DNA of 53,879 nt, taken from assembly GCA_019351895.1 (NCBI GenBank), contig JABBOH010000031.1, positions 1-53,879 of the forward strand. Reading direction: 5' to 3'. Within the stretch, counting starts at the first letter, position 1. Each line of letters opens with the position of its first letter. The notes under the pieces are model-generated. The model had not been told where the DNA came from, ran no database searches, and was given only the letters and a program-made list of their open reading frames with translations. Both the position numbers and the translations under genes were made by a program. This document shows, piece by piece, positions 9,405-37,298 of the stretch. The stretch is from Pseudomonadota bacterium (GTDB lineage Bacteria > Pseudomonadota > Alphaproteobacteria > Acetobacterales > Acetobacteraceae).

Positions 9405-9417
9405 GAAAGGAGGCGAC

Positions 9418-10776: not shown

Positions 10777-10788
10777 GTCAGGGAGGGA

Positions 10789-13776: not shown

Positions 13777-13892
13777 TCCGGAGCGTCAATCGGGCTGCCG
13801 AAGGGCCCGGTCGAGACCGAAGTTCGGTGAGAATGAGGCGCGCTCCACATCGACACCGTAAGCAAAACGGCCAATCGGCAGGAGGCTAATGG

Positions 13893-20662: not shown

Positions 20663-20874
20663 GGTGGTCGTTGTCCATCCAGAACATGCCGGGGCCTGTT
20701 GCCAGCTCGGCGCTAGAAGCTAGTCTGCGATCCAGCCAAGCCGAAGAATTTTCGCTCCGACCTGGTATCTACGGTTTGTCCGGGAGACAGATCTTCTCCC
20801 TTTTTCTGCAGGTCGATCCCGCGACCGGTTGGTGCGACACTGGCTTGGAGGATCGGGAAGGCTTGCTAGCTGAG

Positions 20875-21963: not shown

Positions 21964-23289
21964 GTGACTGAGCTTCAACAGAGTAGATCTCCCGCCGCCA
22001 CCTGCGACGTGTTCGTGGTGGGCGGTGGCCCGGCGGGATCGACTGTCGCCGCGCTACTCGCGGAGCGCGGGCATCGCGTTGTGCTCGCCGACAAGGATCG
22101 CCATCCGCGCTTCCACATTGGCGAATCACTGCTGCCGCAGAACCTGCCGCTCTTCGACCGGCTCGGGGTGCGCGACAAGCTCGAGACGAGCGCCATGCAC
22201 AAATACGGCATCGAATTCGTGTCGCCCTATCACGGCAAACGGGTGAAATACGAGTTCGGCAGAGCACTGGACAAACGCTTTCCATATGCTTTCCAGGTCA
22301 GACGCTCAACTTTCGACCACATGCTGCTACGAAATGCGGCAGAGAAGGGGGCCGAGGTTGTCGAGGAGTGCCGGGTCGAGACGGTCACCTTCCCAAAGGG
22401 TGGACGCCCCGTCATAACCGCCAAAGGCGCGGATGGCACCGAGCGGCGTTGGGAGGCTGCCTTCGTGGTCGATGCCTCCGGCCGGGACACGCTCCTCGCC
22501 GGACAGATGCAAATCAAGGAAAGAAACGTCCGGAACAACAGCGCGGCGATCTTCGGTCATTTCTCGGGCGCGCGCCGGCTGTCCGGCAAGGACGAAGGCC
22601 ACATCTCCATCGTCTGGTTCGATAATGGCTGGTTCTGGTTCATCCCGCTTTCCGACGGCACGACGAGCGTGGGCGCCGTCTGCCCATCGGAATTCTTCAA
22701 AACTCGCGGCAGCACGGATCTGCATGCCTTCTTTCGCCGGCTGATCGCTTCATGTCCCGATATCGCCGACCGCTTGCAGGACGCTGCACTCGTGGGGGAT
22801 GTCGCGGCCACGGGCAACTACTCGTATCAGACTCGGCAGACCAGTGGCGATCGCTTTCTCATGGTCGGCGATGCCTGTGCTTTCATAGATCCGGTTTTTT
22901 CGACCGGCGTATATCTCGCGATGGTCAGCGCCTTCGCGGCGGCCGAAGCCGTTGATGGCTGCCTCCACGCGCCCCACAGGGCAGCACGGCTGCTACGCCG
23001 CTATGACGCCCGCACGCGGAAAGCGCTCGGCGCTTTCACGTGGTTCATCTATCGCATTCGAGAGCCGGCCATGCGCAACCTCTTCATGTCGCCGCGCAAT
23101 ATGTTCCGTGTGGAGGAGGCGGTGCTATCGCTTCTGGCGGGCAGCGTGGCCGATGGCTGGCCTGTGCGCGGACGGCTTTATCTCTTCCGCATCATCTACT
23201 ACGTCACGAAATTCTCGCACTTGCGCTTCCGCCTGAGTGGCGACAGGCGGCGCTTCTACGGCGGCGCGAAAGAGGCCTTGAACGGCTGA
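21964..23289 (+). CDS. Flavin-dependent halogenase-like oxidoreductase
   Basis: A 441-aa FAD protein starting at GTG behind a strong SD. The FAD site is VVGGGPAGSTVAALL (about 18-32). PRFHIGESLLP is typical of the phenol/pyrrole-type halogenase branch. The WxWxIP motif is complete (W223, W225, I227, P228), and AFIDPVFSTGV (F307, P310, S313, G315) matches the second halogenase signature. Known relatives use FADH2, O2 and halide to form HOCl or HOBr that is passed to an electron-rich aromatic ring; some relatives are plain monooxygenases or reductases. The catalytic Lys could not be placed. Next to aryl-polyene genes, it may halogenate the aryl head group, as in brominated xanthomonadins. Confidence 0.82.
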   Translation: MTELQQSRSPAATCDVFVVGGGPAGSTVAALLAERGHRVVLADKDRHPRFHIGESLLPQNLPLFDRLGVRDKLETSAMHKYGIEFVSPYHGKRVKYEFGRALDKRFPYAFQVRRSTFDHMLLRNAAEKGAEVVEECRVETVTFPKGGRPVITAKGADGTERRWEAAFVVDASGRDTLLAGQMQIKERNVRNNSAAIFGHFSGARRLSGKDEGHISIVWFDNGWFWFIPLSDGTTSVGAVCPSEFFKTRGSTDLHAFFRRLIASCPDIADRLQDAALVGDVAATGNYSYQTRQTSGDRFLMVGDACAFIDPVFSTGVYLAMVSAFAAAEAVDGCLHAPHRAARLLRRYDARTRKALGAFTWFIYRIREPAMRNLFMSPRNMFRVEEAVLSLLAGSVADGWPVRGRLYLFRIIYYVTKFSHLRFRLSGDRRRFYGGAKEALNG

Positions 23290-23297
23290 GGCGCGTC

Positions 23298-24020
23298 GTG
23301 GACGGTGCCCGCTTGGTGCTGATCCCGAGCTACAACACGGGGCCAAGACTTGCGGCGACAGTGCGCGAGGCCGCGCGCCACTGGCAGCCGGTTTGGCTCG
23401 TGGTCGACGGCAGCACCGACGGTTCCGCCGACGGCATCACGGCGACCCCAGCGCTTCGCGTTTTGCGGCTGGCCCGCAACTGCGGCAAGGGCGGCGCCGT
23501 GTTGGAGGGCCTCCGCGCCGCCGCTGATCTCGGATTTTCCCATGCACTCGTCATGGACGCCGATGGTCAACATCCCGCCGAAGCCATCGGGGAGTTCATG
23601 ACGCTCGCCACGCGGCACCCGTCGGCCATGATTCTCGGTGTTCCGGTGTTCGATGCCTCGGCGCCGCGTGTGCGGGTGCTCGGGCGGCGGATTTCCAATT
23701 TGATCGTGCGTTGGCTGACAGCGGCAGACATCAGCGATGCTCTATTCGGCTTCCGCATCTACCCGATCGCGCCGTTGCTCTCGGTCATGGAAGCGAGCCC
23801 GCACATGCGGCGTTACGATTTTGACGCCGAGGCCGTCATCCGCCTGTCGTGGCGAGGCGTCGCCGCCATCAACCGCCCCGTGCCGGTGCGATATTTTCGC
23901 ACAGATGAAGGGGGCATCTCGCATTTCCGCTATGGGCGCGACAATCTCCTGCTCGCCCGCATGTATTGCCGACTCACCTTGGAGGCGATCGGCCGACGTC
24001 TCAGGCCATCCCGCCGTTGA
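23298..24020 (+). CDS. Family 2 glycosyltransferase (dolichol-phosphate-mannose-synthase-like)
   Basis: A 240-aa GT-A fold enzyme. LVLIPSYNTGPRLAATV starts the nucleotide-sugar site, WLVVDGSTDGSADG follows, and DADGQHP (87-93) is the metal-binding DxD region. The frame is open to 23040, but the added N-terminus reads through the previous gene out of its frame. GTG 23298, 8 nt after the halogenase stop and starting right at the fold, is the likely start. It overlaps the convergent ketoreductase gene by 20 nt. GT2 genes are common in aryl polyene clusters, where they are thought to help attach the polyene to a lipid-linked carrier. Confidence 0.88.
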   Translation: MDGARLVLIPSYNTGPRLAATVREAARHWQPVWLVVDGSTDGSADGITATPALRVLRLARNCGKGGAVLEGLRAAADLGFSHALVMDADGQHPAEAIGEFMTLATRHPSAMILGVPVFDASAPRVRVLGRRISNLIVRWLTAADISDALFGFRIYPIAPLLSVMEASPHMRRYDFDAEAVIRLSWRGVAAINRPVPVRYFRTDEGGISHFRYGRDNLLLARMYCRLTLEAIGRRLRPSRR

Positions 24021-24720
24021 TGGAGATGATCTGCCCGCTGATGTAGGCGGCTCGGTCCGAGGCCAGGAAGGCCACGAGATCCGCCACTTCCCGTGGCTCT
24101 CCGGCGCGCTGCATCGGCACCATCCGCGTGATCGCCTCCTTCGGGAACAGTGCCTCCGTCCCTGGAGAGGTGATGATGCCGGGTGCGACGGCATTCACGG
24201 TAACCCCGCGGCTGGCGAGTTCCAGCGCGAGCGAGCGCGTGGCTCCGTGCAGCCCGGCCTTCGCTGCGGCATAGTTCGTCTGTCCGCGATTGCCCATTAC
24301 CGCCGTGACGGACGAGATGTTGATGATGCGCCCCCAGCGGGTTCTGATCATGGGCAGAAGCAGCGGCTGCGTGACGTTGAAGAAGCCGTTGAGGGAGACG
24401 TCGATGACGCGGGCCCATTGGTCGCGCCGCATCCCCGGCATCACCGCATCGTCGTGGATGCCGGCATTGTTCACCAGGATCTGGATGGGTCCATCTTCCA
24501 GCAGCCGGGCCAGCCCCGCGGCGGTTGCATCGGCATCCGTGATGTCGAAGCGGCTCGCCTCCGCGCTCCCGCCCAATGCGCGAATTTCCGCCGCCAGCAC
24601 CTCGGCCCGCGCAAGCTGCCCGTGGGCGTGGAGAATCACATGGTGCCCGGCGGCGGCGAGCGTCGCGGCGATGGCGCCACCAATGCTGCCGCTCGCACCG
24701 GTGACCAGAGCACGCTTCAT
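24001..24720 (-). CDS. 3-oxoacyl-ACP reductase (FabG/ApeQ-like)
   Basis: A 239-aa short-chain dehydrogenase: cofactor loop TGASGSIGGAI near the N-terminus, NNAG, active-site Ser in INISSVTAV and the YxxxK pair in NYAAAKAG. It should reduce the 3-oxoacyl-ACP formed at each extension. The start is placed at ATG 24720, overlapping the upstream dehydratase stop by 4 nt; a longer form to 24762 adds only unrelated residues. It is the last gene of the 13-gene operon and overlaps the 3' end of the convergent glycosyltransferase. Confidence 0.93.
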   Translation of the reverse strand: MKRALVTGASGSIGGAIAATLAAAGHHVILHAHGQLARAEVLAAEIRALGGSAEASRFDITDADATAAGLARLLEDGPIQILVNNAGIHDDAVMPGMRRDQWARVIDVSLNGFFNVTQPLLLPMIRTRWGRIINISSVTAVMGNRGQTNYAAAKAGLHGATRSLALELASRGVTVNAVAPGIITSPGTEALFPKEAITRMVPMQRAGEPREVADLVAFLASDRAAYISGQIISINGGMA

Positions 24721-25157
24721 GGCGGCGCCTCGAACAGGACTGTTGCCCGTCCGCTCAGCCACTCATTGCTTGCCGCTGCAACGGTGAAGGCATAAGCCGC
24801 GCCCCGTGCATCGCCCATGGTTCGCCGGGCCATCACCGTCAGCGGTCCGATGCCGGGCGGTAAGGTCGTCGCGAGCAGGCGGACATCGCGCAGGCTTACC
24901 AGGAAGCCCGGGCGCGGCGGCCCTTCCGCGGGCGCGGTGAGCCGGCCGTGGACCGCCATCGCCTGGGCCGCGAGTTCGATGCCGCAGGCCGCGCCAAGGC
25001 TCCCATCCGATCGACGCAGCGGATTATCCGGCGCCGCGTGGCGGGCGGAGAAGCACGCGATGGCGGTGTCGTTCCAGCTTTCGACGCCGTCCAACAGACA
25101 CATGGCACCGGCATGCGGAATCAACGCCAGGATCTCATTGCGTGCGATGAGGGTCAT
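24717..25157 (-). CDS. Hotdog-fold 3-hydroxyacyl-ACP dehydratase (ApeP-like)
   Basis: A 146-aa single hotdog domain. The catalytic His sits in LIPHAGAMCLLDGVESW (His15) and the acidic partner in CGIELAAQAMAVHG, the FabA/FabZ arrangement. It should remove water from the 3-hydroxyacyl-ACP; without an enoyl reductase in the cluster the double bonds accumulate as a polyene. ATG 25157 overlaps the previous stop by 4 nt, deciding the start over an upstream ATG at 25265. One of two dehydratase genes in the operon. Confidence 0.85.
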   Translation of the reverse strand: MTLIARNEILALIPHAGAMCLLDGVESWNDTAIACFSARHAAPDNPLRRSDGSLGAACGIELAAQAMAVHGRLTAPAEGPPRPGFLVSLRDVRLLATTLPPGIGPLTVMARRTMGDARGAAYAFTVAAASNEWLSGRATVLFEAPP

Positions 25158-25960
25158 GCGGCGTCTGCCGGTCCAACCCGGATGTGAAGCGCGAGGTCGT
25201 CCAGGTAATCGAGGGTGATCTCGGCTGGCGCGCGGCAAGCCAGGGCTGCCAATAAGGGCAGGCATCGCGCGGCCGGCACGGTTCGGCGCATCGGTTCGAG
25301 ATCTGGCGGAGACGCCGCCGTGACGGCGCCGCGATGGCTGCTCAGGTTCAGGTCGATCCGCATGCGACCGACGCCGCGCGGCGCGGGCGACAGCACCAGG
25401 GCCACGGCGAGCGCCTCTGGGATCAAGCGGGCCAGGGCCAGCGGACCGGGATACGGCAGGTCGTAGGCAATGAGCACCACGGCGTCGCGTTCGGCCATCG
25501 CCTGCGCGCCAGCCTCGATCAGCCCGGCCGCGAAGCTGCCATCATGCGCGCAGAGGCTGGTCGCGGGGGTCCTGGCGCCGGTCGCGATGCTCCAATATCC
25601 TGCCGCGACGTTATGAACCGAATTGTGGAACCTCGTGGGTGAAAGGGCAGGATCCGGTCCGGCCAGCGTCTCCAGAATACTATGAATGGTCTCGCCATCC
25701 CCGCCGGAGGAAGCAAACACTGCGGGCGTCGTCGCTGGAGACATGCCGGCGGCTTCGAAGGCTTCCGCGCCGGCGGCCAAAGCAAGCCTCACACTCTGTG
25801 GGGCGCGGCGGCGTTCGTTGGCCGGCAGAAGGCTGGCTGGTGGAACCGCAAGAGGGGCTGGCACATAGGGTGTTTTCCCGGTCAGGATGGGCAGGCTGAG
25901 CGCCCAGCCGGCCAGGCCAGGCCCGCACAGGCCGATACCTTCGACAAAAAGCGGAATCAC
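25154..25960 (-). CDS. Short ketosynthase / chain-length-factor-like (ApeC-like)
   Basis: A 268-aa protein of the short ketosynthase type seen in aryl polyene clusters (Pfam Ketoacyl-synt_2-like). FHNSVHNVAAGYWSIATG and SLCAHDGSFAAGLIEA are its typical blocks. It is far shorter than a full ketosynthase and lacks the Cys-His-His triad, so it probably partners the full ketosynthase encoded just upstream as a chain-length factor. GTG 25960 makes a GTGA overlap with that gene, in line with the start pattern of this operon. Confidence 0.85.
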   Translation of the reverse strand: MIPLFVEGIGLCGPGLAGWALSLPILTGKTPYVPAPLAVPPASLLPANERRRAPQSVRLALAAGAEAFEAAGMSPATTPAVFASSGGDGETIHSILETLAGPDPALSPTRFHNSVHNVAAGYWSIATGARTPATSLCAHDGSFAAGLIEAGAQAMAERDAVVLIAYDLPYPGPLALARLIPEALAVALVLSPAPRGVGRMRIDLNLSSHRGAVTAASPPDLEPMRRTVPAARCLPLLAALACRAPAEITLDYLDDLALHIRVGPADAA

Positions 25961-27153
25961 GCGGCCCGGCCCAGGATGACGGCGCAATTCACCCCGCCGA
26001 AACCGAATGCGTTGCACATCACCCGATCGACCCTGGCTTCGCGCCCCTCCAGCAGATGGCCGGAGGCGAAGGCCGGATCCAGCCTGCTGGTATGCGGGCT
26101 GCCGGGCAGGAAGCCATGCTGGATGCTCAGCGCGCCGATAGCCGCGCTCACGATGCCGGCGGCGCCCAGCGTGTGGCCAGTGAAGCCCTTGGTGGAACTG
26201 CGCGGCGTGTGCGCCCCAAAGAGCGTGGTCACGGCCTTGTCCTCGGCGGCGTCGCCCGCCAGCGTCGCGGTCCCGTGCATGTGGATATAGTCGATCGCCT
26301 CCGGCCGTAGCCCCGCGTGGCTCAGTGCCCGCCGCATGGCTTCCTCGGCGCCCCTCCCTTCGGGATCGGGAGAGGACATATGATAGGCATCGGAACTCTC
26401 CCCCGTTCCCAGCAGCATGAGAGCCTCGCCTGCCGCAGCGGCGTCCGCACGCTCCAGAAGCGCAAAGCCCGCTCCCTCGCCGATGGAAATGCCGCTCCGC
26501 TCGGCATCGAAGGGACGGCAGGGACCCTCTGCCATGACGCCGAGCGACTGGAAGCCGAACAGGGTGGTCGCACAGAAACTGTCCGCGCCGCCCACGACCG
26601 CAGCGTCGCAGAGACCGGCCGCCACCATGCGCGATGCGGCGGCAAACACCTTGGCCGTCGCGGCGCAGGCCGTGGAAATGGTGAAGCTTGGTCCGGCGAG
26701 CCCCAGCCGCGTTCGCACGAAGCGGCCGAGGGCGTAGGTGTTGTGGGTCCGGTCGTAATCGAAGCCCGGCGGCAGAGTGCCATTCATGGGACAGAGCTGA
26801 CGGTACGCCTCTTCAGTCTGCAGGATGCCGGACGTGCTGGTGCCGGTGAAAAGGCCGATGCGCGAAGGCCCATACAGGGCTTTGGCTCTCTCCACCGCCG
26901 CCTCGAAACCATCCGCGCGCAACGCCTGTTCGGCAAGACGGTTGTTTCTGCAATCAAATGGCGCCCAGTCGCCGATCAGTGGTGCGTCATTCAGCCCGCC
27001 CGCTTCCCCGGCATAGGCTGCGATGGGCAGTCTATCGAAACGGCAGGGCGCCAACGCACTTCGGCCACGCACCAGGGCGTCCCAGGTTTTGTCCTGCCCG
27101 GCACCCAAAGCGGTGGCGAGGCAGAGGCTGGAGATCATCAGCGGCGGGGTCAC
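25957..27153 (-). CDS. Beta-ketoacyl-ACP synthase II-type (ApeO/ApeR-like)
   Basis: A 398-aa elongating ketosynthase with the complete triad: Cys163 in STACAATAKVF, His293 in HMHGTATLAGD and His327 in KGFTGHTLGAAG. It condenses malonyl-ACP with the growing acyl chain in the cytoplasm. GTG 27153 overlaps the upstream stop (GTGA) and begins right at the fold (TPPLMISSLCLATALG); ATG 27138 is the alternative. Only one full ketosynthase is present in the window, while many described aryl polyene clusters carry two or more. Confidence 0.93.
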   Translation of the reverse strand: MTPPLMISSLCLATALGAGQDKTWDALVRGRSALAPCRFDRLPIAAYAGEAGGLNDAPLIGDWAPFDCRNNRLAEQALRADGFEAAVERAKALYGPSRIGLFTGTSTSGILQTEEAYRQLCPMNGTLPPGFDYDRTHNTYALGRFVRTRLGLAGPSFTISTACAATAKVFAAASRMVAAGLCDAAVVGGADSFCATTLFGFQSLGVMAEGPCRPFDAERSGISIGEGAGFALLERADAAAAGEALMLLGTGESSDAYHMSSPDPEGRGAEEAMRRALSHAGLRPEAIDYIHMHGTATLAGDAAEDKAVTTLFGAHTPRSSTKGFTGHTLGAAGIVSAAIGALSIQHGFLPGSPHTSRLDPAFASGHLLEGREARVDRVMCNAFGFGGVNCAVILGRAA

Positions 27154-28406
27154 GGCCGCGCCCCGACTTGCGGAACCGGTGCATCCAGGCGGTTCAGCCA
27201 ATCTCCGACCTTGGCGGTTTCGGTGGCGAGATAGCGCTCATAGCTATCGTGAAAGCGGACACGATCGGGCGGCCAGGCTGCGCGACGCTGCGACCGGCCG
27301 GCGGCGCTCCGATAGCGCTCGGAGAAATGACGCAGATTGGCAAGAAGGTCCGTGTAGCGCGGCTCGCTCAGAATACGTCGGAACCACCCGCGGTAGGGAC
27401 CCCAAAAAGGATTGTCGTAGAAGATCAGACGAAGCTTTCCCACGTCGTAGATTTCGTTGTCCGGGATGGCTGGGCCCATCGAGGTGAGAGCCGCGGGTCC
27501 GGTTGGCAAGGTTCCGGTCTCCAGCAGCGCGCGCCGGGCGGCGTCGTCCGCGAACAGCGCCTCGGCGTCTTCCAGGGGAAGATCATTGGCGCGAAGGGCA
27601 AGATCAACGAGCATGTTCTTGGGAACCGGAAAGCGGAAGACGGCGAGGGGCGCGAACTGCCCGGTAGGCCAGGGCGCCCAGAACCCGGCGGCGGCCAGCG
27701 CGTTATGCGCCACATGCACGCAGTTGTCGTTGATAAGCCGCCAGCGATAGAACGCGGCGCCGGTGCGATAAGGGAGGTTCAGCGCATTGAGGAAATCGAC
27801 GATCAGCTGCATCCGGCGTTCGTCCAGCGGCAGCCGCGCCCGGTAGCAGTGACGGCCCAACTGCACCCCATAGTCGGTTGCAATGGAGATTTCGTACTTG
27901 AAATCCTCCGTCGACATGCCGGGCGGTTTTTCTCGGAAGAAACGCTCGTGGAATTCGATGCCGTCCAGCAGGCCCCTAGCGCGCGCAAGCGCCTGCGTCC
28001 GCTCATAGGTCTCGCGCGTGACGGGCTCCCCTGGCGCCAGCGCACCACGAAAGACGAAGTCGCGATCTTCCACCGCGACCCAGTTCGCGTTGCGGTAGTG
28101 GGAGTTGACGCTGATTGCGGCCCCCATCCGGCCGGGCCGCGCGTGCGGCGGGCAAAGCTCCAGTATCGGATAGCCGGTGCTGCGATCGACGCGCACGCCG
28201 TTGAGGTAGAGCAGCGAATGCCCGCCGCGCCCACTCCGCACGGCCACGCCAAGGCCGGGTTTTTTTCGCAACTCGGACAGAGCGCAAATCTCGGCGTAAT
28301 AGGGTACGAGGTCTTCATAGATCGGCGCAGCCGGGACGATACGCTCGGTGCTCGGACCCTGGACGTTCATGCCGGCATCTATAATCCTGTCGCTTGCGGC
28401 GTCCAA
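27150..28406 (-). CDS. Unknown protein in the polyene operon, possible thiol-hydrolase fold
   Basis: A 418-aa protein I cannot place in a named family. It lies between the hydrolase and ketosynthase genes, so it is very likely part of the pathway. The centre carries INDNCVHVAHNALAAAGF; a Cys followed by helix residues with His nearby recalls NlpC/P60- or LRAT-like thiol enzymes. An earlier block, GRGGHSLLYLNGV, has a conserved-looking His that could complete a permuted site. No signal peptide or membrane helix is seen. ATG 28406 is used; ATG 28370 is possible. A role in transferring or releasing the polyene acyl chain is a guess only. Confidence 0.75.
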   Translation of the reverse strand: MDAASDRIIDAGMNVQGPSTERIVPAAPIYEDLVPYYAEICALSELRKKPGLGVAVRSGRGGHSLLYLNGVRVDRSTGYPILELCPPHARPGRMGAAISVNSHYRNANWVAVEDRDFVFRGALAPGEPVTRETYERTQALARARGLLDGIEFHERFFREKPPGMSTEDFKYEISIATDYGVQLGRHCYRARLPLDERRMQLIVDFLNALNLPYRTGAAFYRWRLINDNCVHVAHNALAAAGFWAPWPTGQFAPLAVFRFPVPKNMLVDLALRANDLPLEDAEALFADDAARRALLETGTLPTGPAALTSMGPAIPDNEIYDVGKLRLIFYDNPFWGPYRGWFRRILSEPRYTDLLANLRHFSERYRSAAGRSQRRAAWPPDRVRFHDSYERYLATETAKVGDWLNRLDAPVPQVGARP

Positions 28407-28417
28407 TGAAGGGGGCC

Positions 28418-29095
28418 TCAGCCGAACGGGCTGCGGGCCAGGATCGCCTCCCAGGCCTCGGTCCAGGCTGGCCAGTCATGCCCGCCTCCGACCAGCGCCA
28501 CCTGATCGCGCGGAAGCTCGGCCGCGAGCAGGCGATGCCCGCCGGCGAAGCGGTCCCGCTCGCCATGGCCGAGGAAGAGACGGGGCGATGTCGCGCCCGC
28601 CCGCAGGTATTGCTGCAGCCAGCCGAGCATGTTCCGCTCCGGCGCTGTCGCGGCCGATGTCGCGGCGGACCAGGAGGTGAAACCGCCAGCCTGCGCCACC
28701 TCCGCCATCGTGCCGTGAGTGCCGAGAAACGGGGCGAGCAGCACGACCCCCTCGACCAACTCCGCATGATCGCTGGCATAGAGCAGCGCTCCCATGCCGC
28801 CGAGGGAAATGCCGAGAAGCCAGATCCGCCGGTTGCCCGCAGCGCGGGCGGGCAGGATGACGGCCTCGTGCAGCGCCGCGCCAATACGGCCTTCGAGGTA
28901 GAGATCGACCTCCGGCCTCACCGCGATCACATCGATAGCGGAGCCGCTGGCCTGCGCCTTGGCCACCAGCCCATGGGCCGCGAAGTCCTCGGCCTTGATG
29001 CCAGCCCCCGGCAGCATCACGAGCAGGATCCTGTCCGCTGATGAACGGGGTGAGGGATAGCGCAGACAGGCGCCGACACCGGCGGCGGCGCTCAT
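28418..29095 (-). CDS. Alpha/beta hydrolase
   Basis: A 225-aa protein with the alpha/beta-hydrolase layout. ILLVMLPGAGIKAEDF gives the oxyanion region, LLGISLGGMGALLY the nucleophile elbow (GxSxG, Ser97), GHGERDRFAGG a probable acid and GGGHDWPAW the His. It should act as an esterase or thioesterase in the cytoplasm. Its ATG overlaps the exporter stop by 4 nt. In the pathway it may hydrolyse stalled acyl-ACPs or cut an ester during transfer to the lipid carrier. Confidence 0.85.
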   Translation of the reverse strand: MSAAAGVGACLRYPSPRSSADRILLVMLPGAGIKAEDFAAHGLVAKAQASGSAIDVIAVRPEVDLYLEGRIGAALHEAVILPARAAGNRRIWLLGISLGGMGALLYASDHAELVEGVVLLAPFLGTHGTMAEVAQAGGFTSWSAATSAATAPERNMLGWLQQYLRAGATSPRLFLGHGERDRFAGGHRLLAAELPRDQVALVGGGHDWPAWTEAWEAILARSPFG

Positions 29096-31434
29096 GGCGC
29101 CGGCCTGCCGTCAGGCGGGGCGCTGAAGGCGGCACCGCAGACGAGGCAGAGGAATGTACCGATGGCGACCGTCATTCCGATATCGTGGAGCACGGGAAGG
29201 CGGGAAAGCGACAACAGCCCATAGGCCGCGACCGTGCACAGGTTGGCCAGCATGATGGAGGCAAGCGCGCGCCGCCAGGCCTCGGGCTCGTCGCCCCGCC
29301 GGGCAGCAAAGAAAAGGCAGTAGTTTGAGCCGAGGGCGACGATCAGCAGGAAGCCCGCGACCATGAAGATGGAGAGCTTCCCGTCGAGCGTCAGCGCCGC
29401 GGCCGTCAGCGTCACAGCGGCCGCCACCGGCCCCGCCACCGCCATCACCCGCCGCAGGGAACGCAGCCCCGCGCAGAGCAGCAGGAGCACGGCGATGCTT
29501 CCCACCACCGCGAGCATCACGGCCTCATGCTGGAAGGTATGCAGCAGGGCGGCTGATTGTTGGTTGAGGTCGATGAAGACAACGCCCCTCGGCGCCTCGG
29601 CGGCCAGCCGGGTGCGCAGCAGGGCAGGGTCGGCCACGCCATGCAGGGGCGCCAGCACCAGCCACCCCCGGCCCTCCGGCATCACCATGGACTGCAGACG
29701 CAGGCTGAGCGGCGGCGGCAGGCTTGCGGGCGTCATCAGGGGGGCGGCGCGTGCCTTCGCCACATCCTCGAGGAACGGGCCGAAGATTCCCATGCGAAAC
29801 GGCGTGTCTGCGGTCGCCGCCGCGAGGTTCGCGCGTAGCGTGGCGGCATCCGGCAGTGCCGCGCGCCGCGCCGCCTGCGTCCGCTCGCTCGGCAGTACCA
29901 GGCTCGGCAGATCGTAACCCGCCAGAGCCTTCTGCTGGACCAACGGCTCCAGCACCGACTGGAGTTGCTCGCTTATCGTCAGCGCATTCTGCAGCCCCTC
30001 GGCGTGGTAGGCGACGAAGTAGCGCGTGCCGGGAATGCCAAGCTCGCGGCTCAGGCGCTGATCCAGTGCCTGAGCCGCGGCGGGAAGCGGGCTGAGGTTG
30101 AGCAGGTTGTCGTCCCACATCGAGCCACGATGCGTGAGCAGCGCTACAAGCGACGCCGCCACCAGCACCGCGAGCAGAACGCGGACCTGTTGTTGCCCGC
30201 GCAACAGAAGCCGCAGGGGTGCGCCGATGCCGTCTGCGCCTCGGGCGAAGAAGCCGGCCGGCACCAGCGCCGGCAGCACGAAGCGCGTGACGCCGGCGGC
30301 GGCGATGAGGCCGGCCACGGAAAACAGCCCGAGTTGGGCGAAGCCCGTGAAATCCGACAGCAACATGGTGCAGAAACCGGCAATCGAGGTGAGCGCGCCA
30401 AGCCGCAGCGTCGGCCAGATCCGGGCCAGCGTTCGTCCGGCGTCGTCGCCGCGCAGGGTCTGGGTCAGCAGGTAGATGGAATAGTCCATCGCCTCGCCGA
30501 TGAGGGTCACGCCGAAGCCGAGCGTGATCGCATGCACAAAGCCGAAGGCAAGGGACACGGCGGCTGTGGCGGCGAGCGCTCCGCAGGCGACCGGCAGCAA
30601 CCCGAGGAGCAGCACGCGCGGCGAGCGGTAGGCGATGAGCAGGAACAGGATGGCGCCCGCACTGGCAAGGATCGAAAGCCGCGTCACGTCGCGCCGGGTG
30701 ATGTCGCGCGTATCGACGGCGAACACACCGGGGCCCGTCGCCTGGAGGCGCGCCCCGCCGGCACCGGACATAGACCCGCGCGCGGCGGCGAAATCCCGGT
30801 CGATGACGTGCAGGGCGTGGGCCTGCGCATCGATATCGAAGCCCGGCGCGCGCGTGCGCAGCAGCAGGAGCGCCGCTTTGCCATCCGGAGAAAGCCAGGC
30901 GCCGTCTTCGGTCAGTGGCCCGTGGCCGCCTCCGCCCGCCAGCCGCTGCGCGAGCGAAAGCGCGAGGCCGGTCGGGTCCGCCGGCAGGCTTTGCGCCGCG
31001 GCAGCGCCGAAGGGTGAGCTCAAGAGTGCCAGATCATGGTCGAGTGCGATGTGCAGCCCGGCTGCGGTGAAACTTTGAGGCCTGACATTGGCGCTGAGCA
31101 GGAACCGGTTGCGCCAGACAAAGGACCGCATGCCCGCCATGGCCTCGCCGTCGCCGTTCAGCACGTCGACGATCGCAGGATCGCGGCGAACGCGATCCGA
31201 GAGGCTGCGACTGAGCGCCGCCAATGTCGGCGCAGGGGCGCCGGTGATCTGCAGAAGCAGGATGCGCGAGGCGCCGCCGCTGCTCACCTGAGCGTCCAGC
31301 GCCTTTTGCGCCAGGCTGTGCGCATGGGGCAGAAAATCCGCCATATCGGTTCGGTACGGGCTGCGCGCGGCGATCACCGCGCACAACAGGGCGAGAGCGA
31401 GGCAGAGCCCGGCCGGCAGCCAGCTACGGCGCAT
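29092..31434 (-). CDS. MMPL/RND-superfamily lipid exporter (ApeM-like)
   Basis: A 780-aa inner-membrane protein with the twice-repeated RND plan: one helix, a large periplasmic loop, then five helices (first bundle near LSILASAGAILFLLIAYRS, second near AVVGSIAVLLLLCAGLRSL). Motifs such as GEAMDYSIYLLTQTLRG correspond to the proton-relay helix. ATG 31434 (11-nt overlap with the LolA-like gene) starts right before TM1 and is preferred to 31506. MMPL proteins in aryl polyene clusters are thought to move the polyene lipid from the inner membrane towards the outer membrane together with a LolA-like carrier. Confidence 0.92.
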   Translation of the reverse strand: MRRSWLPAGLCLALALLCAVIAARSPYRTDMADFLPHAHSLAQKALDAQVSSGGASRILLLQITGAPAPTLAALSRSLSDRVRRDPAIVDVLNGDGEAMAGMRSFVWRNRFLLSANVRPQSFTAAGLHIALDHDLALLSSPFGAAAAQSLPADPTGLALSLAQRLAGGGGHGPLTEDGAWLSPDGKAALLLLRTRAPGFDIDAQAHALHVIDRDFAAARGSMSGAGGARLQATGPGVFAVDTRDITRRDVTRLSILASAGAILFLLIAYRSPRVLLLGLLPVACGALAATAAVSLAFGFVHAITLGFGVTLIGEAMDYSIYLLTQTLRGDDAGRTLARIWPTLRLGALTSIAGFCTMLLSDFTGFAQLGLFSVAGLIAAAGVTRFVLPALVPAGFFARGADGIGAPLRLLLRGQQQVRVLLAVLVAASLVALLTHRGSMWDDNLLNLSPLPAAAQALDQRLSRELGIPGTRYFVAYHAEGLQNALTISEQLQSVLEPLVQQKALAGYDLPSLVLPSERTQAARRAALPDAATLRANLAAATADTPFRMGIFGPFLEDVAKARAAPLMTPASLPPPLSLRLQSMVMPEGRGWLVLAPLHGVADPALLRTRLAAEAPRGVVFIDLNQQSAALLHTFQHEAVMLAVVGSIAVLLLLCAGLRSLRRVMAVAGPVAAAVTLTAAALTLDGKLSIFMVAGFLLIVALGSNYCLFFAARRGDEPEAWRRALASIMLANLCTVAAYGLLSLSRLPVLHDIGMTVAIGTFLCLVCGAAFSAPPDGRPAP

Positions 31435-32020
31435 CGGCCAGGGTTTCGTGAACCGTCGTTTGGGTGAGGTCGCCGTGGGCGCCCCCGCTTTCGATCTCGG
31501 TGACATGCGCGCCGCTGCCGCGAATGCTGAGCCAGTTCAGGATAGTCCGCACGCCCGGATCCTTCGGTCGCAGCACCAACTGCCAGTCCTGCGGCCCGCC
31601 GCTCAGCGCGATCGTGTAGGCACTCCGCAGCGCGGGCGCGTCGCCCGCCAGCGTGTCGCGAATGCCGCCGACCAAGCCCGCGACCTGCGGCGCCTGACCG
31701 AGACTGAACTCGTGGGTCTGCCCGTTCGCGGTCAGCGTGGCAACGCCGTTCTGCAGAACGAAATCCGCACGGGCCGGGGTCAGCACCGTCTCGTTCAGAT
31801 AGTCCGGCGCGACATAGCGCAGCGTGCCGGAGGAATGGAGCGGCGTCTTCAGCAGCGCCAGGGTCTTCGTCTCGGTGAAGGTGCCCGAGGCGGCGCGCAC
31901 CCCCGCCAGTGTGTGCATGAGCGCGCCAAGACCCCAAACCGCTGGTGTCTCGGCCCTGGCCGTGGGCGCGGAGACGGCCAGGATCAGGCCGAGCAGCGCC
32001 AGATGCCGGAGCCCGCGCAT
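31424..32020 (-). CDS. LolA-like periplasmic lipid carrier
   Basis: A 198-aa protein with a Sec signal peptide (MRGLRHLALLGLILAVSAPT, cleavage near ARA-ETP) and a LolA/LolB-like half-barrel with SGTFTETKTLALLKTPLHS and GTLRYVAPDYLNETVL. It should carry a hydrophobic lipid-linked product across the periplasm. The frame is open to 32182, but ATG 32020, one nt after the acyltransferase stop and at the signal peptide, is clearly the start. It pairs with the overlapping MMPL exporter gene. Confidence 0.88.
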   Translation of the reverse strand: MRGLRHLALLGLILAVSAPTARAETPAVWGLGALMHTLAGVRAASGTFTETKTLALLKTPLHSSGTLRYVAPDYLNETVLTPARADFVLQNGVATLTANGQTHEFSLGQAPQVAGLVGGIRDTLAGDAPALRSAYTIALSGGPQDWQLVLRPKDPGVRTILNWLSIRGSGAHVTEIESGGAHGDLTQTTVHETLADAP

Positions 32021-32021
32021 C

Positions 32022-32924
32022 TCAGGCCCAGAAGTCGTAGAAGTTGAACCAGTTGTAAGGCTCCTCGCGGCAAAGCGCCTCCAGCCGTGAGACGTAGCGG
32101 CGCATGATCTCGTCAAGCCATGCCTGTGGGTCCGCCGGGCGTCCGTCGCGCGCGGGCGCGAGCAGTTCGAACCGCACCTCATAGCGGCCGCGTCCCTTGT
32201 AGACGCCCGCCATCATGACGACGGGGCGCTGCAGCATCATCGCAACCCGGAACGGCCCTTGCGGAAAGGCAGCCGGCGCGCCCAGGAAGGGGAGGCGCCG
32301 CATGTCTCGCCCGTCGATGTTGCGGTCCGCGAGAACGCCGACAAAATTGCCTGAACGCAGCCGTTCCGCCACGAGGATGAGGGAATCGAGCCTGCCGAGG
32401 CCGATCACCTCGGCTTCGAGTTTCGGATTGATCGCCGCGAGCGCCGCCCGGATCTTGCGGGCGTTCGCCTCGTACATCAGCAGGCTCACAGGCACGTCCC
32501 GGTAACGCCGCCCGACGATCCGAGCGGCTTCGAAATTCCCGAAATGCCCCCCGAAAAGAAGGCAGCCGCCGCCATCCGCATCGATCTGCCGAACCAGTTC
32601 CTCACCCTCGACGCTGATGTCGAACCACGTCTCCTGCTCGTTGAGCAGATAGACGCGATCCAAGACGCAAGAACCGAAGGTCAGGAAGTGCCGATAGATC
32701 TCCAGCAGACGCGGGCGGTGGCCGAGGGCGCGGGTGAGATAGCCGCGAGAAGCTCTGATCGCCGTCGGGGATGACAGCAGAAAATACAGGCACACGGGAT
32801 AGAGGAAAACATGCGCCACGCGGCGTCCGAGGCGGAGCGCGATCCAGGTGGCGAGCTTGATGGCCGATGTGGAGCCGCGTTCCGGGCGGCTCGCCCATTC
32901 CTGCGTGCGCGACTGGCCGCTCAT
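32022..32924 (-). CDS. LpxL/HtrB-like lysophospholipid acyltransferase
   Basis: A 300-aa membrane-associated acyltransferase of the lipid A-acyltransferase family. The HX4(D/E) catalytic motif is visible as GGHFGNFEAARIVGRRY, and the acceptor-side block GVLADRNIDG follows at the expected distance. An N-terminal hydrophobic stretch (HVFLYPVCLYFLLSS) anchors it to the inner face of the membrane. In aryl polyene clusters such enzymes probably attach the finished chain or a fatty acid to the lipid anchor. ATG 32924 overlaps the previous stop by 4 nt. Confidence 0.9.
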   Translation of the reverse strand: MSGQSRTQEWASRPERGSTSAIKLATWIALRLGRRVAHVFLYPVCLYFLLSSPTAIRASRGYLTRALGHRPRLLEIYRHFLTFGSCVLDRVYLLNEQETWFDISVEGEELVRQIDADGGGCLLFGGHFGNFEAARIVGRRYRDVPVSLLMYEANARKIRAALAAINPKLEAEVIGLGRLDSLILVAERLRSGNFVGVLADRNIDGRDMRRLPFLGAPAAFPQGPFRVAMMLQRPVVMMAGVYKGRGRYEVRFELLAPARDGRPADPQAWLDEIMRRYVSRLEALCREEPYNWFNFYDFWA

Positions 32925-33223
32925 CCCGTCGTCTCCAGCGTACCGGCGACAATACTCTTTTCCTGTCCGGGACGCCGGAACTCGAAGGTCACTACTCCAT
33001 TATCGTGAGCGCGCCAGCGAAGCTCCAACGGTTCGCCATGGCGGGCAGGGGCGATAAATTTCACCGCCCGGAAGCAGACCGGCCCGGCAGCGGCACCGGC
33101 GATGGCCTGTGCCGCTTCGTCCAGCAGCAGAGCGCCTGGAATAACGGGGCGGCCGGGAAAATGCCCGCTGGCCGTCGGGTGCGCGTCCGGCACGAACAGC
33201 TCGCGTCTCTGCCACTCAGTCAT
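32921..33223 (-). CDS. Hotdog-fold dehydratase (ApeI-like)
   Basis: A 100-aa hotdog domain. GHFPGRPVIPGALLLDEAAQ is the hallmark FabA/FabZ segment, with the catalytic His at about 21 and an acidic residue on the central helix. It is the second dehydratase of the operon and shorter than FabZ. ATG 33223 overlaps the ligase stop by 4 nt; the longer frame to 33673 lies antisense-like within the ligase and has no family resemblance. It probably works with the 24717-25157 protein as a hetero-dimer, as shown for other aryl polyene systems. Confidence 0.87.
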   Translation of the reverse strand: MTEWQRRELFVPDAHPTASGHFPGRPVIPGALLLDEAAQAIAGAAAGPVCFRAVKFIAPARHGEPLELRWRAHDNGVVTFEFRRPGQEKSIVAGTLETTG

Positions 33224-34557
33224 TCCGCGGCCTGTTCCGCGAGCTTCAGCATGTCGTCGCGGACCAGCTTGCCGAGGCGGTTGCGGGGCAGACTGGCGAC
33301 AAGGATCAGAGGCCTCGGCAGGAAGGCCGGGTCGATCCGGCATCTCAGCGCCTGCATGATCTGCTCGGCGGACACGCCCGGTGCGACGGCGAGCGCTCTC
33401 AGCCGCGGCACCGCCTGACCCGAGACCTCGTCCATGACGAAGGTGCCGTCCACCACGCCCGGCACCGCGAGCAGTTGATGGTTGAGGTAGCTGATGGATG
33501 AGCGCTTTCCCGCGACGTTCACGAGATCCGCGGAGCGGCTGCCCAAGCGGAACGTCTCGGGCGCTGTGGGTTCGATGACATCCTGCACCGGGGCGATGCC
33601 TTCTACGGCGGCGCCCTTGGCCCACCAGCTTCCGCCCTCCTGATAAAGCGCCACGCCCTTGAAGCAGTGCCATTCGCTTGTCCGCGTGCTGCGGCGGGTG
33701 GCGATCTGCCCCGCCTCCGTGCAGCCATAGATTTCGATGAGCGGAGCCTGGAATCGCGCTTCGGCCGCCTCGGCCAGTTCCGAAGGGAGCGGGGCGGTCG
33801 CGGAGAGGATAAGGCCTGCTGCCGGCATCGCGACAGTATCGGCTACCAGGGCGCGCAAATGCACGGGCGTGGTCACGAGCAGGCGCGGCGCTGGCGCAGC
33901 CTGCAACGCGGCGCTCACATCGGCCGGAAATAGCGGAGAGAGGGTCGAGACTGTCAGCCCGAACTGCCAGGCGAGCAAGATGATGGATTCCAGCCCGTAG
34001 CTATGCTGATGGGGCACGGTGCCGACGACGCAGCCGCCCTCGAACTCGGCCGCGCCCAGCCGGTCTCCAGCCGCGCGCGCGCTGGAAACGAGCGTCGACC
34101 AGCGCTTCGGCACGGGCTTGGGCCGGCCCGTGGAGCCCGAGGTAAAGAGCACAACAGCCGGCTGGTCCCCCCGGATGAGTAGCGAGGCTTCCTCCGCCGA
34201 AGGTAGAACCGGCGGGAACGGCAGATGCGGCAGATCGGGCGGGGCGCCATCCGTCACCGCATAGAGCCCGGGATAGTCTGAGGCGAGGTCCTGGAGCATT
34301 CCCGGCGTATTGGCCGAGGGCATGAGCGTGACCTGCCCGCGCTCGAGGGCTGCGGCGAAACCGACCATGAAGCGGTAGCGGTCCTGGCAGAGATTCACGA
34401 GGTGGGGCTTGTCGGGCAGCAAAGCCGCAAGTCCCGCCACGTCGCGGCGGAAGGTCGCGACATCGATGCCGGCGCTGCCGCGCATTGCCATGAGGGCACC
34501 CGGCGCGTAGCGCAACACCGCGAGATAGTCGTCGGACTCGGCGGCGCGCACGCTCAT
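33220..34557 (-). CDS. AMP-dependent acyl/aryl ligase (ApeH-like)
   Basis: A 445-aa adenylate-forming enzyme. The P-loop is VVLFTSGSTGRPKPVPKRW (about 136-154), the aromatic/acid pocket motif is EIYGCTEAGQIATR, and the C-terminal hinge and Lys lie in LPRNRLGKLVRDDM. It should activate the starter acid (4-hydroxybenzoate-type in known systems) and load it on the ACP. Its length is shorter than acyl-CoA synthetases, as usual for ApeH-type ligases. It overlaps the COG4648-like gene and the dehydratase gene by 4 nt each. Confidence 0.9.
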   Translation of the reverse strand: MSVRAAESDDYLAVLRYAPGALMAMRGSAGIDVATFRRDVAGLAALLPDKPHLVNLCQDRYRFMVGFAAALERGQVTLMPSANTPGMLQDLASDYPGLYAVTDGAPPDLPHLPFPPVLPSAEEASLLIRGDQPAVVLFTSGSTGRPKPVPKRWSTLVSSARAAGDRLGAAEFEGGCVVGTVPHQHSYGLESIILLAWQFGLTVSTLSPLFPADVSAALQAAPAPRLLVTTPVHLRALVADTVAMPAAGLILSATAPLPSELAEAAEARFQAPLIEIYGCTEAGQIATRRSTRTSEWHCFKGVALYQEGGSWWAKGAAVEGIAPVQDVIEPTAPETFRLGSRSADLVNVAGKRSSISYLNHQLLAVPGVVDGTFVMDEVSGQAVPRLRALAVAPGVSAEQIMQALRCRIDPAFLPRPLILVASLPRNRLGKLVRDDMLKLAEQAAE

Positions 34558-35126
34558 GAGCGTGGTGCTTCGCGCGGAGGTGCGGCAGTGGCCGATCCCT
34601 CATGCATGCATTGGCTCACCATTCGAACGATCATCGACAGGGAATGGCGCGGCGGATTCCGCAGAACGCAACGCCGAACGGCATATTCTCCTGCGAACAT
34701 CGACGCCACCAACGGGATGTCCAGCACGTTCACAAAGAATGACCAAGCGGTCAGAGGGGCGAAGCAGAAGAGCGAGACCGAGGTGACGAGCTGCGCCATG
34801 AAGAACACCGACCACGCGATGGTGACCCGCCGCGTATATCGGATCATCTCCTCCGTCAGAGGGCCGTGCAGGCGGCTGGCCATGGTCGTGATCAGCGGCA
34901 TGCGGCCGCGGCGCAACGTCAGCGCGAAGGTCGCAAGGAGGCTGCTATAGAGGCTCCAATGCGCAACGGCCGATACGGTGACGAAGCTGAGCTTGAAGAC
35001 GCCGAGGAGAGACAAGCCGATCGGCGTTTGGCGCGTCGTGAGGATGACAAGGTGAAAGAGCAGCGGAACTGCCGCTATCATCAGCACGGCCATGAGCGGC
35101 GAGCGAGCCTTGGTTGCTCCGATCAT
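34554..35126 (-). CDS. COG4648-like integral membrane protein
   Basis: A 190-aa protein with about four hydrophobic segments (for example LMAVLMIAAVPLLFHLVIL and IAWSVFFMAQLVTSVSLF). Small membrane proteins of this kind are found next to the ACP and ligase genes in aryl polyene clusters; their biochemical role is not established. They may dock the soluble synthase to the membrane. It is placed directly after the ACP gene with no gap and overlaps the ligase start by 4 nt. Confidence 0.8.
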   Translation of the reverse strand: MIGATKARSPLMAVLMIAAVPLLFHLVILTTRQTPIGLSLLGVFKLSFVTVSAVAHWSLYSSLLATFALTLRRGRMPLITTMASRLHGPLTEEMIRYTRRVTIAWSVFFMAQLVTSVSLFCFAPLTAWSFFVNVLDIPLVASMFAGEYAVRRCVLRNPPRHSLSMIVRMVSQCMHEGSATAAPPREAPRS

Positions 35127-35402
35127 TCAGCTAGCTACATGGGTCTGGATATAGTCCGTCAGGCTGCGCAGGGATTTAAAGATGCTGGCATTGTCGGCAT
35201 CGTCGGAACGCAGCTTCACCCCATAGCGCTGCGCCACCACGAGGGAGATTTCGAGCATGTCGATCGAATCTAGCCCAAGCCCCTCCTTGTACAGAGGCAG
35301 CTCCGGATCAATTGATGCGGCTGGGGCTTCCAGATTGAGAGTTGACACAATGAGGCTGGCAAGTTCGGCTTCGGCGCTGGTCTGAGAGGCGGAGCTGGGC
35401 AT
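35127..35402 (-). CDS. Acyl carrier protein
   Basis: A 91-aa carrier protein with the phosphopantetheine site GLGLDSIDML (Ser46) and a four-helix composition, ending LRSLTDYIQTHV. It carries the growing polyene as a thioester. ATG 35402 is preferred over the longer frame to 35519, which adds 39 atypical residues. It is the first gene of the 13-gene operon; the promoter should lie in 35403-35658. Known aryl polyene clusters usually encode two ACPs, and here only this one is present. No phosphopantetheinyl transferase gene occurs in the window. Confidence 0.9.
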   Translation of the reverse strand: MPSSASQTSAEAELASLIVSTLNLEAPAASIDPELPLYKEGLGLDSIDMLEISLVVAQRYGVKLRSDDADNASIFKSLRSLTDYIQTHVAS

Positions 35403-35658: not shown

Positions 35659-36309
35659 ATGGAAACGGAAGACAGAGCGATGCCGGTCGGGCGACGTGCC
35701 GTGCTGGGCACCGGTACGGCAGCCGTGTTCATCGCCGGCGTAGCTCCTGGGCCGGATGCTGCCGCCGGAGAAACCCGGGGCGAAGCCACCGTGGCGACAG
35801 TTACCGTGGAGCTTCACGTGAACGGGGCGTCCCACAGGCTCACCCTCGATCCGCGGACAACCTTGCTCGACGCCCTGCGGGAGCATCTCGCCCTGACCGG
35901 CAGCAAGAAGGGCTGCGACCATGGCCAATGCGGCGCCTGCACTGTCCTGCTGGACGGGCGACGCATAAACGCCTGCCTGACGCTCGCGGTGTTGCATGAC
36001 GGCCAGCCTGTCACGACCATCGAAGGCTTGGCGGATGGCGAGACGCTCCACCCGCTCCAGGCGGCCTTCATCGAACATGACGGATTTCAATGTGGATACT
36101 GCACGTCGGGGCAGATCTGCTCGGCAGCCGGCATGCTTGAGGAGAGCCGGGCCGGCATGCCGAGCTTCGTTACCGCGGACTTGGCCGAGCCGCAGCCGCC
36201 TCTGACGGATGATGAGATCCGCGAGCGCATGAGCGGAAATATCTGCCGCTGCGCCGCCTATCCGAACATCGTCGCCGCCATCAGGAAGGCGGCGGAGATC
36301 AGGGCATGA
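35659..36309 (+). CDS. paoA: Periplasmic aldehyde oxidoreductase, 2Fe-2S subunit
   Basis: A 216-aa PaoA-type subunit. The N-terminus is a likely Tat signal ([18 protein letters not shown]). Two Fe-S clusters follow: the plant-type motif [18 protein letters not shown] with a later Cys in RINACL, and the helical motif [13 protein letters not shown] with [10 protein letters not shown]. It passes electrons from the molybdenum site to the FAD subunit. ATG 35659 has an SD (AGGGA) and gives a full signal peptide. It overlaps the next gene by 4 nt. The operon points away from the polyene ACP gene. Confidence 0.92.
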
Positions 36310-37286: not shown

Positions 37287-37298
37287 GGAGCGCGCCAG

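What the first reader, a model, noticed from the sequence alone, without database searches (positions are those of the whole stretch)
21964..35402. Aryl-polyene-type cluster with a compact 13-gene overlapping operon
The sequence shows ACP, aryl-type AMP ligase, two hotdog dehydratases, ketoreductase, one full ketosynthase plus a short chain-length-factor-like ketosynthase, LPLAT, LolA-like carrier, MMPL exporter and COG4648-like membrane protein, with mostly 4-nt overlaps. This is the known aryl polyene (APE)/xanthomonadin gene set. Its make-up is unusual: only one ACP and one complete ketosynthase, an added alpha/beta hydrolase and an unknown 418-aa protein, and no ammonia lyase or chorismate lyase for the starter. 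The product may be a distinct polyene.
Basis: partly seen in the sequence, partly recalled or inferred. Interest (0 to 1): 0.8.

Follow-up and report, generated by a model that had tools for sequence, protein, structure and literature searches.

The report
Halogenated aryl-polyene pigment gene cluster
This is a conserved pigment-making gene cluster of acid-loving acetic-acid-type bacteria, of a known kind (aryl polyene, closest in make-up to xanthomonadin), whose one truly unexplained gene looks like a lipid- or protein-acylating enzyme that travels with the pathway.

Summary
In detail: 13 same-strand genes (35402-24001, minus strand), 8 of 12 junctions with 4-nt overlaps. It is an aryl polyene (APE) pathway: ten operon genes and the neighbouring GT2 match E. 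coli Ape proteins, and the ketosynthase falls with ApeO. The "unusual" make-up is mostly not unusual: one ketosynthase, a half-length CLF and one ACP are what xanthomonadin-type clusters have (PMC3691225, PMC3949708). The description missed two convergent genes inside its own coordinates: a flavin halogenase and a glycosyltransferase (ApeJ is split here). All 13 genes recur together in 13 of 80 related loci. APE clusters with a probable halogenase are already in print for Acetobacteraceae (PMC8776678). The real finding is the "unknown 418-aa" gene: 23 of 24 family genomes that carry it also carry the APE ketosynthase, and the 24th has one cut at a contig edge. It keeps a His...Asn-Cys motif and has a weak but controlled link to Lnb_N/DUF4105, permuted NlpC/P60 acyltransferases. 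A predicted export signal is present in 60 of 79 readable copies; in the window's lineage that signal and a cysteine pair are both lost. Its reaction, the starter and the product are untested.

The parts
35127..35402 (-). acyl carrier protein (ApeE-type)
   Evidence: PF00550, NCBIfam PRK09184 118 bits vs cut-off 70; 41% to E. coli ApeE; Ser46 in 31 of 31
34554..35126 (-). ApeG/COG4648-type membrane protein (G190)
   Evidence: 34% to E. coli ApeG, E 3e-11; no Pfam/NCBIfam hit
33220..34557 (-). aryl-ACP ligase (ApeH-type AMP-binding)
   Evidence: PF00501; 27% to ApeH, E 4e-23; best PDB 4-chlorobenzoyl-CoA ligase
32921..33223 (-). hotdog dehydratase 1 (ApeI-type)
   Evidence: 32% to ApeI, E 2e-5; FabA Pfam match just under cut-off; His21 28 of 28
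32022..32924 (-). LPLAT acyltransferase (matches ApeJ; taken as its C-terminal half)
   Evidence: PF03279; 28% to ApeJ, E 2e-34
31424..32020 (-). LolA-like periplasmic carrier (ApeL-like by family)
   Evidence: PF19574 LolA_3, E 2e-23; flexirubin LolA2 model below cut-off; blastp to ApeL E 0.008 is noise level, an unrelated pair gave 0.004, and phmmer gave no hit
29092..31434 (-). MMPL/RND exporter (ApeM-type); start 31434 or 31506
   Evidence: PF03176; 26% to ApeM, E 7e-26
28418..29095 (-). alpha/beta hydrolase (ABH), no signal peptide seen by eye, possible chain-releasing thioesterase
   Evidence: PF00561; Ser97/Asp181/His206 in 27 of 27; followed by U418 in 28 of 28 loci where present
27150..28370 (-). 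U418: Lnb_N/DUF4105-like cysteine enzyme (the 'unknown 418-aa'); TTG start at 28406 also possible
   Evidence: His51, Asn216-Cys217 conserved; PF13387 in 15 of 55 aligned copies, not the window's; hhalign; AF2 pLDDT 92; co-occurs with KS
25957..27153 (-). elongating ketosynthase (ApeO-type), GTG start
   Evidence: PRK09185 480 bits vs 407; tree; Cys163 45 of 45, both His 44 of 45 with one gap
25154..25960 (-). half-length chain-length factor (ApeC-type), GTG start
   Evidence: PF13723; 7f28_A, 6qsp_B; 30% to ApeC, E 3e-8
24717..25157 (-). hotdog dehydratase 2 (ApeP-type)
   Evidence: 26% to ApeP, E 5e-6; no Pfam/NCBIfam hit; His15 44 of 44
24001..24720 (-). ketoreductase (ApeQ-type)
   Evidence: 46% to ApeQ; best PDB 7caw_A; NCBIfam FabG family
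23280..24020 (+). GT2 glycosyltransferase (matches ApeJ; taken as its N-terminal half), convergent with the operon; exact start not fixed
   Evidence: PF00535; 39% over 239 aa to ApeJ; same position in relatives
21964..23289 (+). flavin-dependent halogenase-like protein
   Evidence: 12 of 14 PDB matches at E 1e-10 are named halogenase or alkylhalidase, another is ChlB4, one is a flavoprotein/dehydrogenase; WxWxIP in 30 of 30, Lys80 29 of 30 with one gap

Best explanation
The locus is a xanthomonadin-type aryl polyene pathway of an Acidocella-like member of the Acetobacteraceae. Proposed order: the ligase loads an aromatic acid (probably a hydroxybenzoate made elsewhere) onto the single ACP; KS-CLF extends it with malonyl units; KR and the two hotdog proteins make the conjugated double bonds; the halogenase halogenates the ring (as bromine is put on in xanthomonadins); the alpha/beta hydrolase releases the chain in place of the ApeK thioesterase; GT2 and LPLAT, one protein (ApeJ) in E. 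coli, build a glycolipid carrying the polyene; MMPL and LolA carry it to the outer membrane. U418 is a permuted NlpC/P60-type cysteine enzyme related to Lnb_N and most likely transfers or removes an acyl chain on the polyene lipid through Cys217 with His51. In most relatives it looks like an exported lipoprotein; in the window's lineage it has lost its export signal and probably one disulfide, and would act on the cytoplasmic side. Shown: gene identities, conserved active-site residues, conserved arrangement, co-occurrence, joint loss of signal and cysteines. Inferred: every reaction, the starter, halogenation, glycolipid, the disulfide and U418 chemistry.
For: Ape matches for ten operon genes and GT2. 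KS and CLF nearest to 6qsp/7f28 chains. ApeO group apart from FabF/FabB/ApeR at 100/100. Active-site residues kept across loci. All 13 genes in 13 of 80 loci, 10 of these 13 with both convergent GT2 and halogenase, one more with GT2 only. U418 in 24 and KS in 56 of 150 family genomes, 23 shared (hypergeometric 8e-11, relatedness not corrected), and a cut KS at a contig edge in the 24th. U418: Lnb_N in 15 of 55 aligned copies, best E 4.8e-5; two matches looked at cover the Cys217 position; hhalign score 31.9, E 0.0012, against at most 23.0 in 30 column permutations and 16.9 for 8 unrelated families, with the Asn-Cys in register. DUF4105 = Lnb, permuted NlpC/P60 (PMC12994826, passages).
Against: The window U418 itself has no Lnb_N match, hhalign probability is only 19.6%, and Foldseek found no PDB match at E 0.001 for a confident model. 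25 of 80 U418 copies show no APE gene within 4 kb (one, L120, only because its frames are broken), and one class-level genome, G351, has U418 but no KS at 1e-60. Genomes of the myxobacterial and other distant copies were not searched for KS. No starter gene is in the cluster: no PF04345 in the genome (the control rang in E. coli), two aromatic ammonia lyases elsewhere, neither beside cluster genes (read by eye). The chorismatase search (PF21168) rang in no control, so it says nothing. The genome's five PF00109 hits are a large PKS, a FabF, the window's KS and CLF and a 22-bit partial hit, so no ApeR-type initiating KS is evident in this draft (97.9% complete). LolA matches ApeL only at noise level.
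Confidence: 0.72

Rival explanations
1. U418 is not an acyltransferase but a structural or LolB-like outer-membrane acceptor that stands in for ApeN (DUF3261), receiving the polyene lipid from LolA.
For: It lies between the exporter and KS, where E. coli has ApeN; most copies carry a lipobox; ApeN has no counterpart here.
Against: Conserved His and Asn-Cys (Cys217 in 80 of 80 rows) and the Lnb_N link fit an enzyme; the window lineage has no export signal, which a LolB-like acceptor would need.
Confidence: 0.2
2. The pathway makes a non-halogenated polyene and the FAD protein is a hydroxylase or other monooxygenase.
For: Flavin monooxygenases are related; NCBIfam lists QhpG and reductase families below their cut-offs; one of 14 PDB matches is a flavoprotein/dehydrogenase.
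Against: 12 of 14 PDB matches are named halogenase or alkylhalidase; the WxWxIP motif and Lys80 are kept (that these mark halogenases is recalled).
Confidence: 0.25
3. The operon is a degenerate or silent remnant.
For: No initiating KS or starter gene in the cluster.
Against: All frames open, active-site residues intact, same gene order in relatives, with proteins 50-79% identical in the closest full locus, L045.
Confidence: 0.05

Closest known systems
Xanthomonadin/Lysobacter/arcuflavin-type aryl polyene clusters (PMC3691225, PMC3949708; passages)
   Same: Single KS with half-length CLF, one ACP, two dehydratases, KR, ligase, LolA, exporter, GT, acyltransferase; halogenase in several of them.
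   Different: No chorismatase or methyltransferase among the 15 genes here; adds alpha/beta hydrolase and U418; one contiguous 13-gene run.
E. coli CFT073 APE cluster (PMC8253772, two sections read)
   Same: Homologues of ApeC, E, G, H, I, J (two separate genes here), M, O, P, Q; a LolA-family gene in the place of ApeL.
   Different: No counterpart of ApeA, B, D, F, K, N, R; extra halogenase, alpha/beta hydrolase, U418.
Acetobacteraceae APE clusters (PMC8776678, one section and passages read)
   Same: Same family; adenylating enzyme, dehydrogenase, probable halogenase, transport and hypothetical proteins; reported in 19 of 43 acidophilic and 28 of 96 acetous genomes.
   Different: The part read does not resolve the hypothetical genes.
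Lnb / DUF4105 lipoprotein N-acyltransferase (PMC12994826, passages)
   Same: His followed by Asn-Cys in permuted order, weak profile similarity, predicted envelope location in most copies.
   Different: No Pfam match for the window copy, no activity known, linked to polyene genes; wider His-Cys spacing than in the Lnb_N homologue printed (by eye).

Membership tests
Aryl polyene biosynthetic cluster | ApeO-type KS with ApeC-type half CLF | tested here: met
Aryl polyene biosynthetic cluster | Ligase, ACP, KR and two hotdog dehydratases | tested here: met
Aryl polyene biosynthetic cluster | Envelope export genes (LolA, MMPL) and acyltransferase | tested here: met
   (LolA_3, MMPL, Lip_A_acyltrans above cut-off); one search supports MMPL and LPLAT, LolA only at noise level
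E. coli-type APE cluster | ApeR initiating KS, second ACP, ApeK thioesterase, ApeN | tested here: not met
   no counterparts among the operon and neighbouring genes compared; no evident ApeR among the five PF00109 hits of the genome
Xanthomonadin-type cluster | Single KS, one ACP, halogenase and separate GT | tested here: met
   against PMC3691225 and PMC3949708
Xanthomonadin-type cluster | XanB2-type chorismatase | tested here: inconclusive
   PF21168 found nothing, but rang in no control genome
Xanthomonadin-type cluster | Halogenated aryl polyene product | not testable with these tools
   needs pigment extraction
Lnb / DUF4105 (PF13387) | Family profile match | tested here: inconclusive
   15 of 55 aligned copies, best E 4.8e-5; none for the window copy; hhalign above controls, probability 19.6%
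Lnb / DUF4105 (PF13387) | Permuted His...Cys catalytic pair | tested here: met
   His51 79 of 80 with one gap, Cys217 80 of 80; Cys217 at a helix N-terminus in the model; catalysis itself not tested
Lnb / DUF4105 (PF13387) | Lipoprotein N-acyltransferase activity | not testable with these tools
   needs assay

The most novel reading that the evidence does not exclude
U418 founds a family of Lnb-related cysteine acyltransferases dedicated to aryl polyenes: it moves the polyenyl chain onto an envelope lipid or lipoprotein. In the Acidocella lineage this step moved from the envelope to the cytoplasm, with matched loss of the export signal and of the Cys60-Cys177 pair (60 of 60 readable copies with a predicted export signal keep both, 0 of 19 without one do).
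Probability: 0.3. Interest if true: 0.68.

Novelty: new variant of a known kind. Interest (0 to 1): 0.45.

Why it matters
[quoted passage not shown] coli the steps that fix the polyene in the envelope are given as predictions (same paper, section 5). A conserved Lnb-like enzyme that travels with the pathway in Acetobacteraceae gives a concrete, testable candidate for an acylation or remodelling step, and a natural experiment in which the enzyme seems to have changed compartment.

Tried and rejected
Rejected: (1) a separate, unusual short KS: it is an ApeC-type CLF. (2) A dedicated ammonia lyase: two exist in the genome; by eye one lies beside a urocanase-like gene and the other among xanthine-dehydrogenase-like and other genes, neither beside cluster genes. 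(3) A UbiC starter enzyme: none found (control rang in E. coli). (4) A shared non-APE partner for remote U418 copies: in 28 such loci the widely shared clusters were the U418 frame and overlapping frames; other shared genes were found in at most 6 loci, mostly of close kin. (5) Fold match in PDB: none at E 0.001. (6) PDB sequence match for U418: none at E 1. (7) The 11.9-16.6 kb gene set as part of the cluster: its TPP enzyme, amine oxidase and FabH were searched in relatives' loci and are not seen beside their clusters (hits under 80 bits dropped).

Dropped rows: A2 used 54 of 80 loci plus the window. One search read 80 rows (window and 79 loci; L119, truncated, is absent); L120 is unreadable, leaving 79. 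Its automatic cut-off put six lipobox-bearing rows (L074, L078, L079, L095, L103, L108) in 'noSP'; I counted them as exported after reading their lipoboxes, so 60 of 60 and 0 of 19 rest on that reading. L104 has a hydrophobic signal but no lipobox and is counted as exported. The 19 are 18 of the Acidocella-type lineage (probably one event) plus L122. The Lnb alignment used 29 of 30 loci (L160, with an internal stop, dropped).

The Lnb paper itself (PMC11573676) is not held, so Lnb rests on passages of PMC12994826.

Full report
Setting. The window is contig 91 of a 4.70 Mb draft genome. Its KS is closest (72%) to a Rhodospirillales MAG and next to Acidocella in a 20-row tree.

Observation. ORF listing and translation give 13 minus-strand genes from 35402 to 24001. 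Family searches and blastp against the 18 Ape proteins of E. coli CFT073 give: ACP=ApeE (41%), G190=ApeG (34%), LIG=ApeH (27%), DH1=ApeI (32%), LPLAT=part of ApeJ (28%), MMPL=ApeM (26%), KS=ApeO (39%; ApeR 32%), CLF=ApeC (30%), DH2=ApeP (26%), KR=ApeQ (46%). LolA is assigned by Pfam LolA_3; its blastp E of 0.008 to ApeL is no better than a chance pair in the same table (0.004), and phmmer gave no hit. ABH and U418 match no Ape protein. Two plus-strand genes converge on the operon: GT2, matching ApeJ at 39% over 239 residues, and a flavin halogenase-like protein. So the two functions of ApeJ are here two genes on opposite strands.

Membership. PDB sequence searches put 6qsp_A and 7f28_B first for KS and 7f28_A and 6qsp_B first for CLF. 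A maximum-likelihood tree separates an ApeO group (window, relatives, E. coli ApeO, one Acidisphaera KS) from FabF, FabB, ApeR and the own genome's FabF with 100/100 support. Active-site residues of ACP, KS, KR, DH1, DH2, ABH and halogenase are conserved in the loci aligned, apart from a few gaps and one Ser-to-Thr in KR; the last Gly of the DH1 GHFPG motif varies (17 of 28). The pathway is an aryl polyene pathway by the sequence tests available.

How unusual is it? PMC3691225 (abstract and passages) describes one KS with a half CLF of 275 residues; the pair recurs in Xanthomonas, Xylella and Variovorax, with a dolichyl-phosphate-mannose-synthase-like gene (absent in Variovorax) and a halogenase (absent in L. 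enzymogenes and Xylella) nearby. PMC3949708 (passages) lists the same kind of set for arcuflavin. The E. coli cluster has two ACPs and three KS-type proteins and no starter-making gene (PMC8253772, two sections). The window thus has the xanthomonadin-type make-up without a recognised chorismatase, plus ABH and U418. PMC8776678 (one section and passages) already reports APE clusters in 19 of 43 acidophilic and 28 of 96 acetous Acetobacteraceae genomes, with a probable halogenase and hypothetical genes.

Conservation. A genome-contig scan with the U418 alignment gave 87 relatives, of which the best 80 were kept. In 31 of 80, KS is the next cluster gene downstream of U418 on the same strand; in 24 U418 lies near other cluster genes (a few by weak ligase-like matches only); in 25 no APE gene was found within 4 kb, limited by contig ends and, for L120, by broken frames. 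ABH was found in 28 loci and is followed by U418 in all 28. Thirteen loci hold all 13 genes; 10 of these also hold the convergent GT2 and halogenase and one (L062, cut by the contig end) GT2 only. L054 is cut right after KR; in L071 neither gene was found in the downstream stretch held.

Coupling of U418 to the pathway. In 150 family genomes (own included) U418 was found in 24 and the KS (E 1e-60) in 56; 23 are shared, and the 24th, G017, has a KS cut at a contig edge (L030). The hypergeometric value is 8e-11 by genome and 2e-9 by genus; relatedness is not corrected for. In 289 class-level genomes (own included) U418 was found in 7 and KS in 21, with 6 shared. The exception, G351, has U418 with no other cluster gene in the 20 kb around it. 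The genomes behind the distant copies were not searched for KS. The link is strong but not absolute.

What U418 is. No Pfam or NCBIfam family at E 0.01 and no PDB sequence match. Of 55 aligned copies 15 match PF13387 Lnb_N (best 4.8e-5), but not the window copy; the two individual matches I looked at (L122 E 0.001, L055 E 0.23, both under the cut-off) cover the position of Cys217, while eight other copies in that call had none. Profile-profile alignment to 29 Lnb_N homologues scored 31.9 (E 0.0012, probability 19.6%) against at most 23.0 for 30 column permutations and 16.9 for eight unrelated families. The model is confident (pLDDT 92.3, pTM 0.91), with His51 opening a strand and Cys217 opening a helix, an arrangement I recall as typical of permuted papain-like enzymes; Foldseek found no PDB match at E 0.001. 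PMC12994826 (passages) places DUF4105 in the permuted NlpC/P60 group and reports that Lnb is the lipoprotein N-acyltransferase of Bacteroides. I read U418 as a distant member of this enzyme group, not as an Lnb.

Change of compartment. By eye the window copy has no signal peptide in the three forward frames upstream. Of 79 readable copies (window included), 60 have a predicted export signal and all 60 have Cys at columns 60 and 177; 19 have none and none of the 19 keeps both (with the hand correction told in Tried and rejected). Eighteen of the 19 are the window's own Acidocella-type lineage and one is L122 (Chloroflexi MAG), so probably two events are seen. Cys29 is kept in all 79 and Cys73 in all but L058 and L122.

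Novelty of the claim. Searches for 'aryl polyene' with Acidocella (only PMC8776678) and for two or more of 'aryl polyene', DUF4105, Lnb, NlpC (three papers, none with 'aryl polyene') found no paper that connects Lnb-like enzymes to aryl polyenes in the library held; subscription papers are mostly missing.

Verdict. A real, intact, conserved gene cluster of a known kind. The remaining novelty is the U418-ABH pair and the apparent compartment change, which are worth a bench test.

Noticed in passing
window 16667-20662 (-): 1331-aa protein with guanylate-cyclase and AAA domains, resembling TOMM-system kinase/cyclase fusions well below cut-off (142 vs 706 bits).
   Followed up: no
window 20671-21567 (+): Crp/Fnr-type regulator just upstream of the halogenase gene; possible regulator of the pair.
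   Followed up: no
window 11905-16599 (+): Acetolactate-synthase/ScyA-like TPP enzyme, amine oxidase (VioA model below cut-off) and FabH-like KASIII in a row, after a LuxR-type regulator and an ABC transporter set at 5892-11511; could be another small biosynthetic set.
   Followed up: partly
window 35674-39506 (+): Xanthine-dehydrogenase-like three-gene set (read by eye from the translation) divergent from the operon start.
   Followed up: no
L070 2-7251: Acidisphaera sp. S103 carries a different APE-like cluster with both an ApeO-type and an ApeR-type KS, so the family holds at least two APE cluster types.
   Followed up: partly
L120: Acetobacter persici copy of U418 and several neighbours with broken frames; described only.
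   Followed up: no
L115-L118, L121, L123: U418 relatives in Myxococcota/deltaproteobacterial and Omnitrophica MAGs with no KS or CLF match nearby; function there unknown.
   Followed up: partly
L066 / G351 C25: U418 copy in a Rhodospirillales MAG without an APE KS at 1e-60 and with Glu in place of His219.
   Followed up: partly
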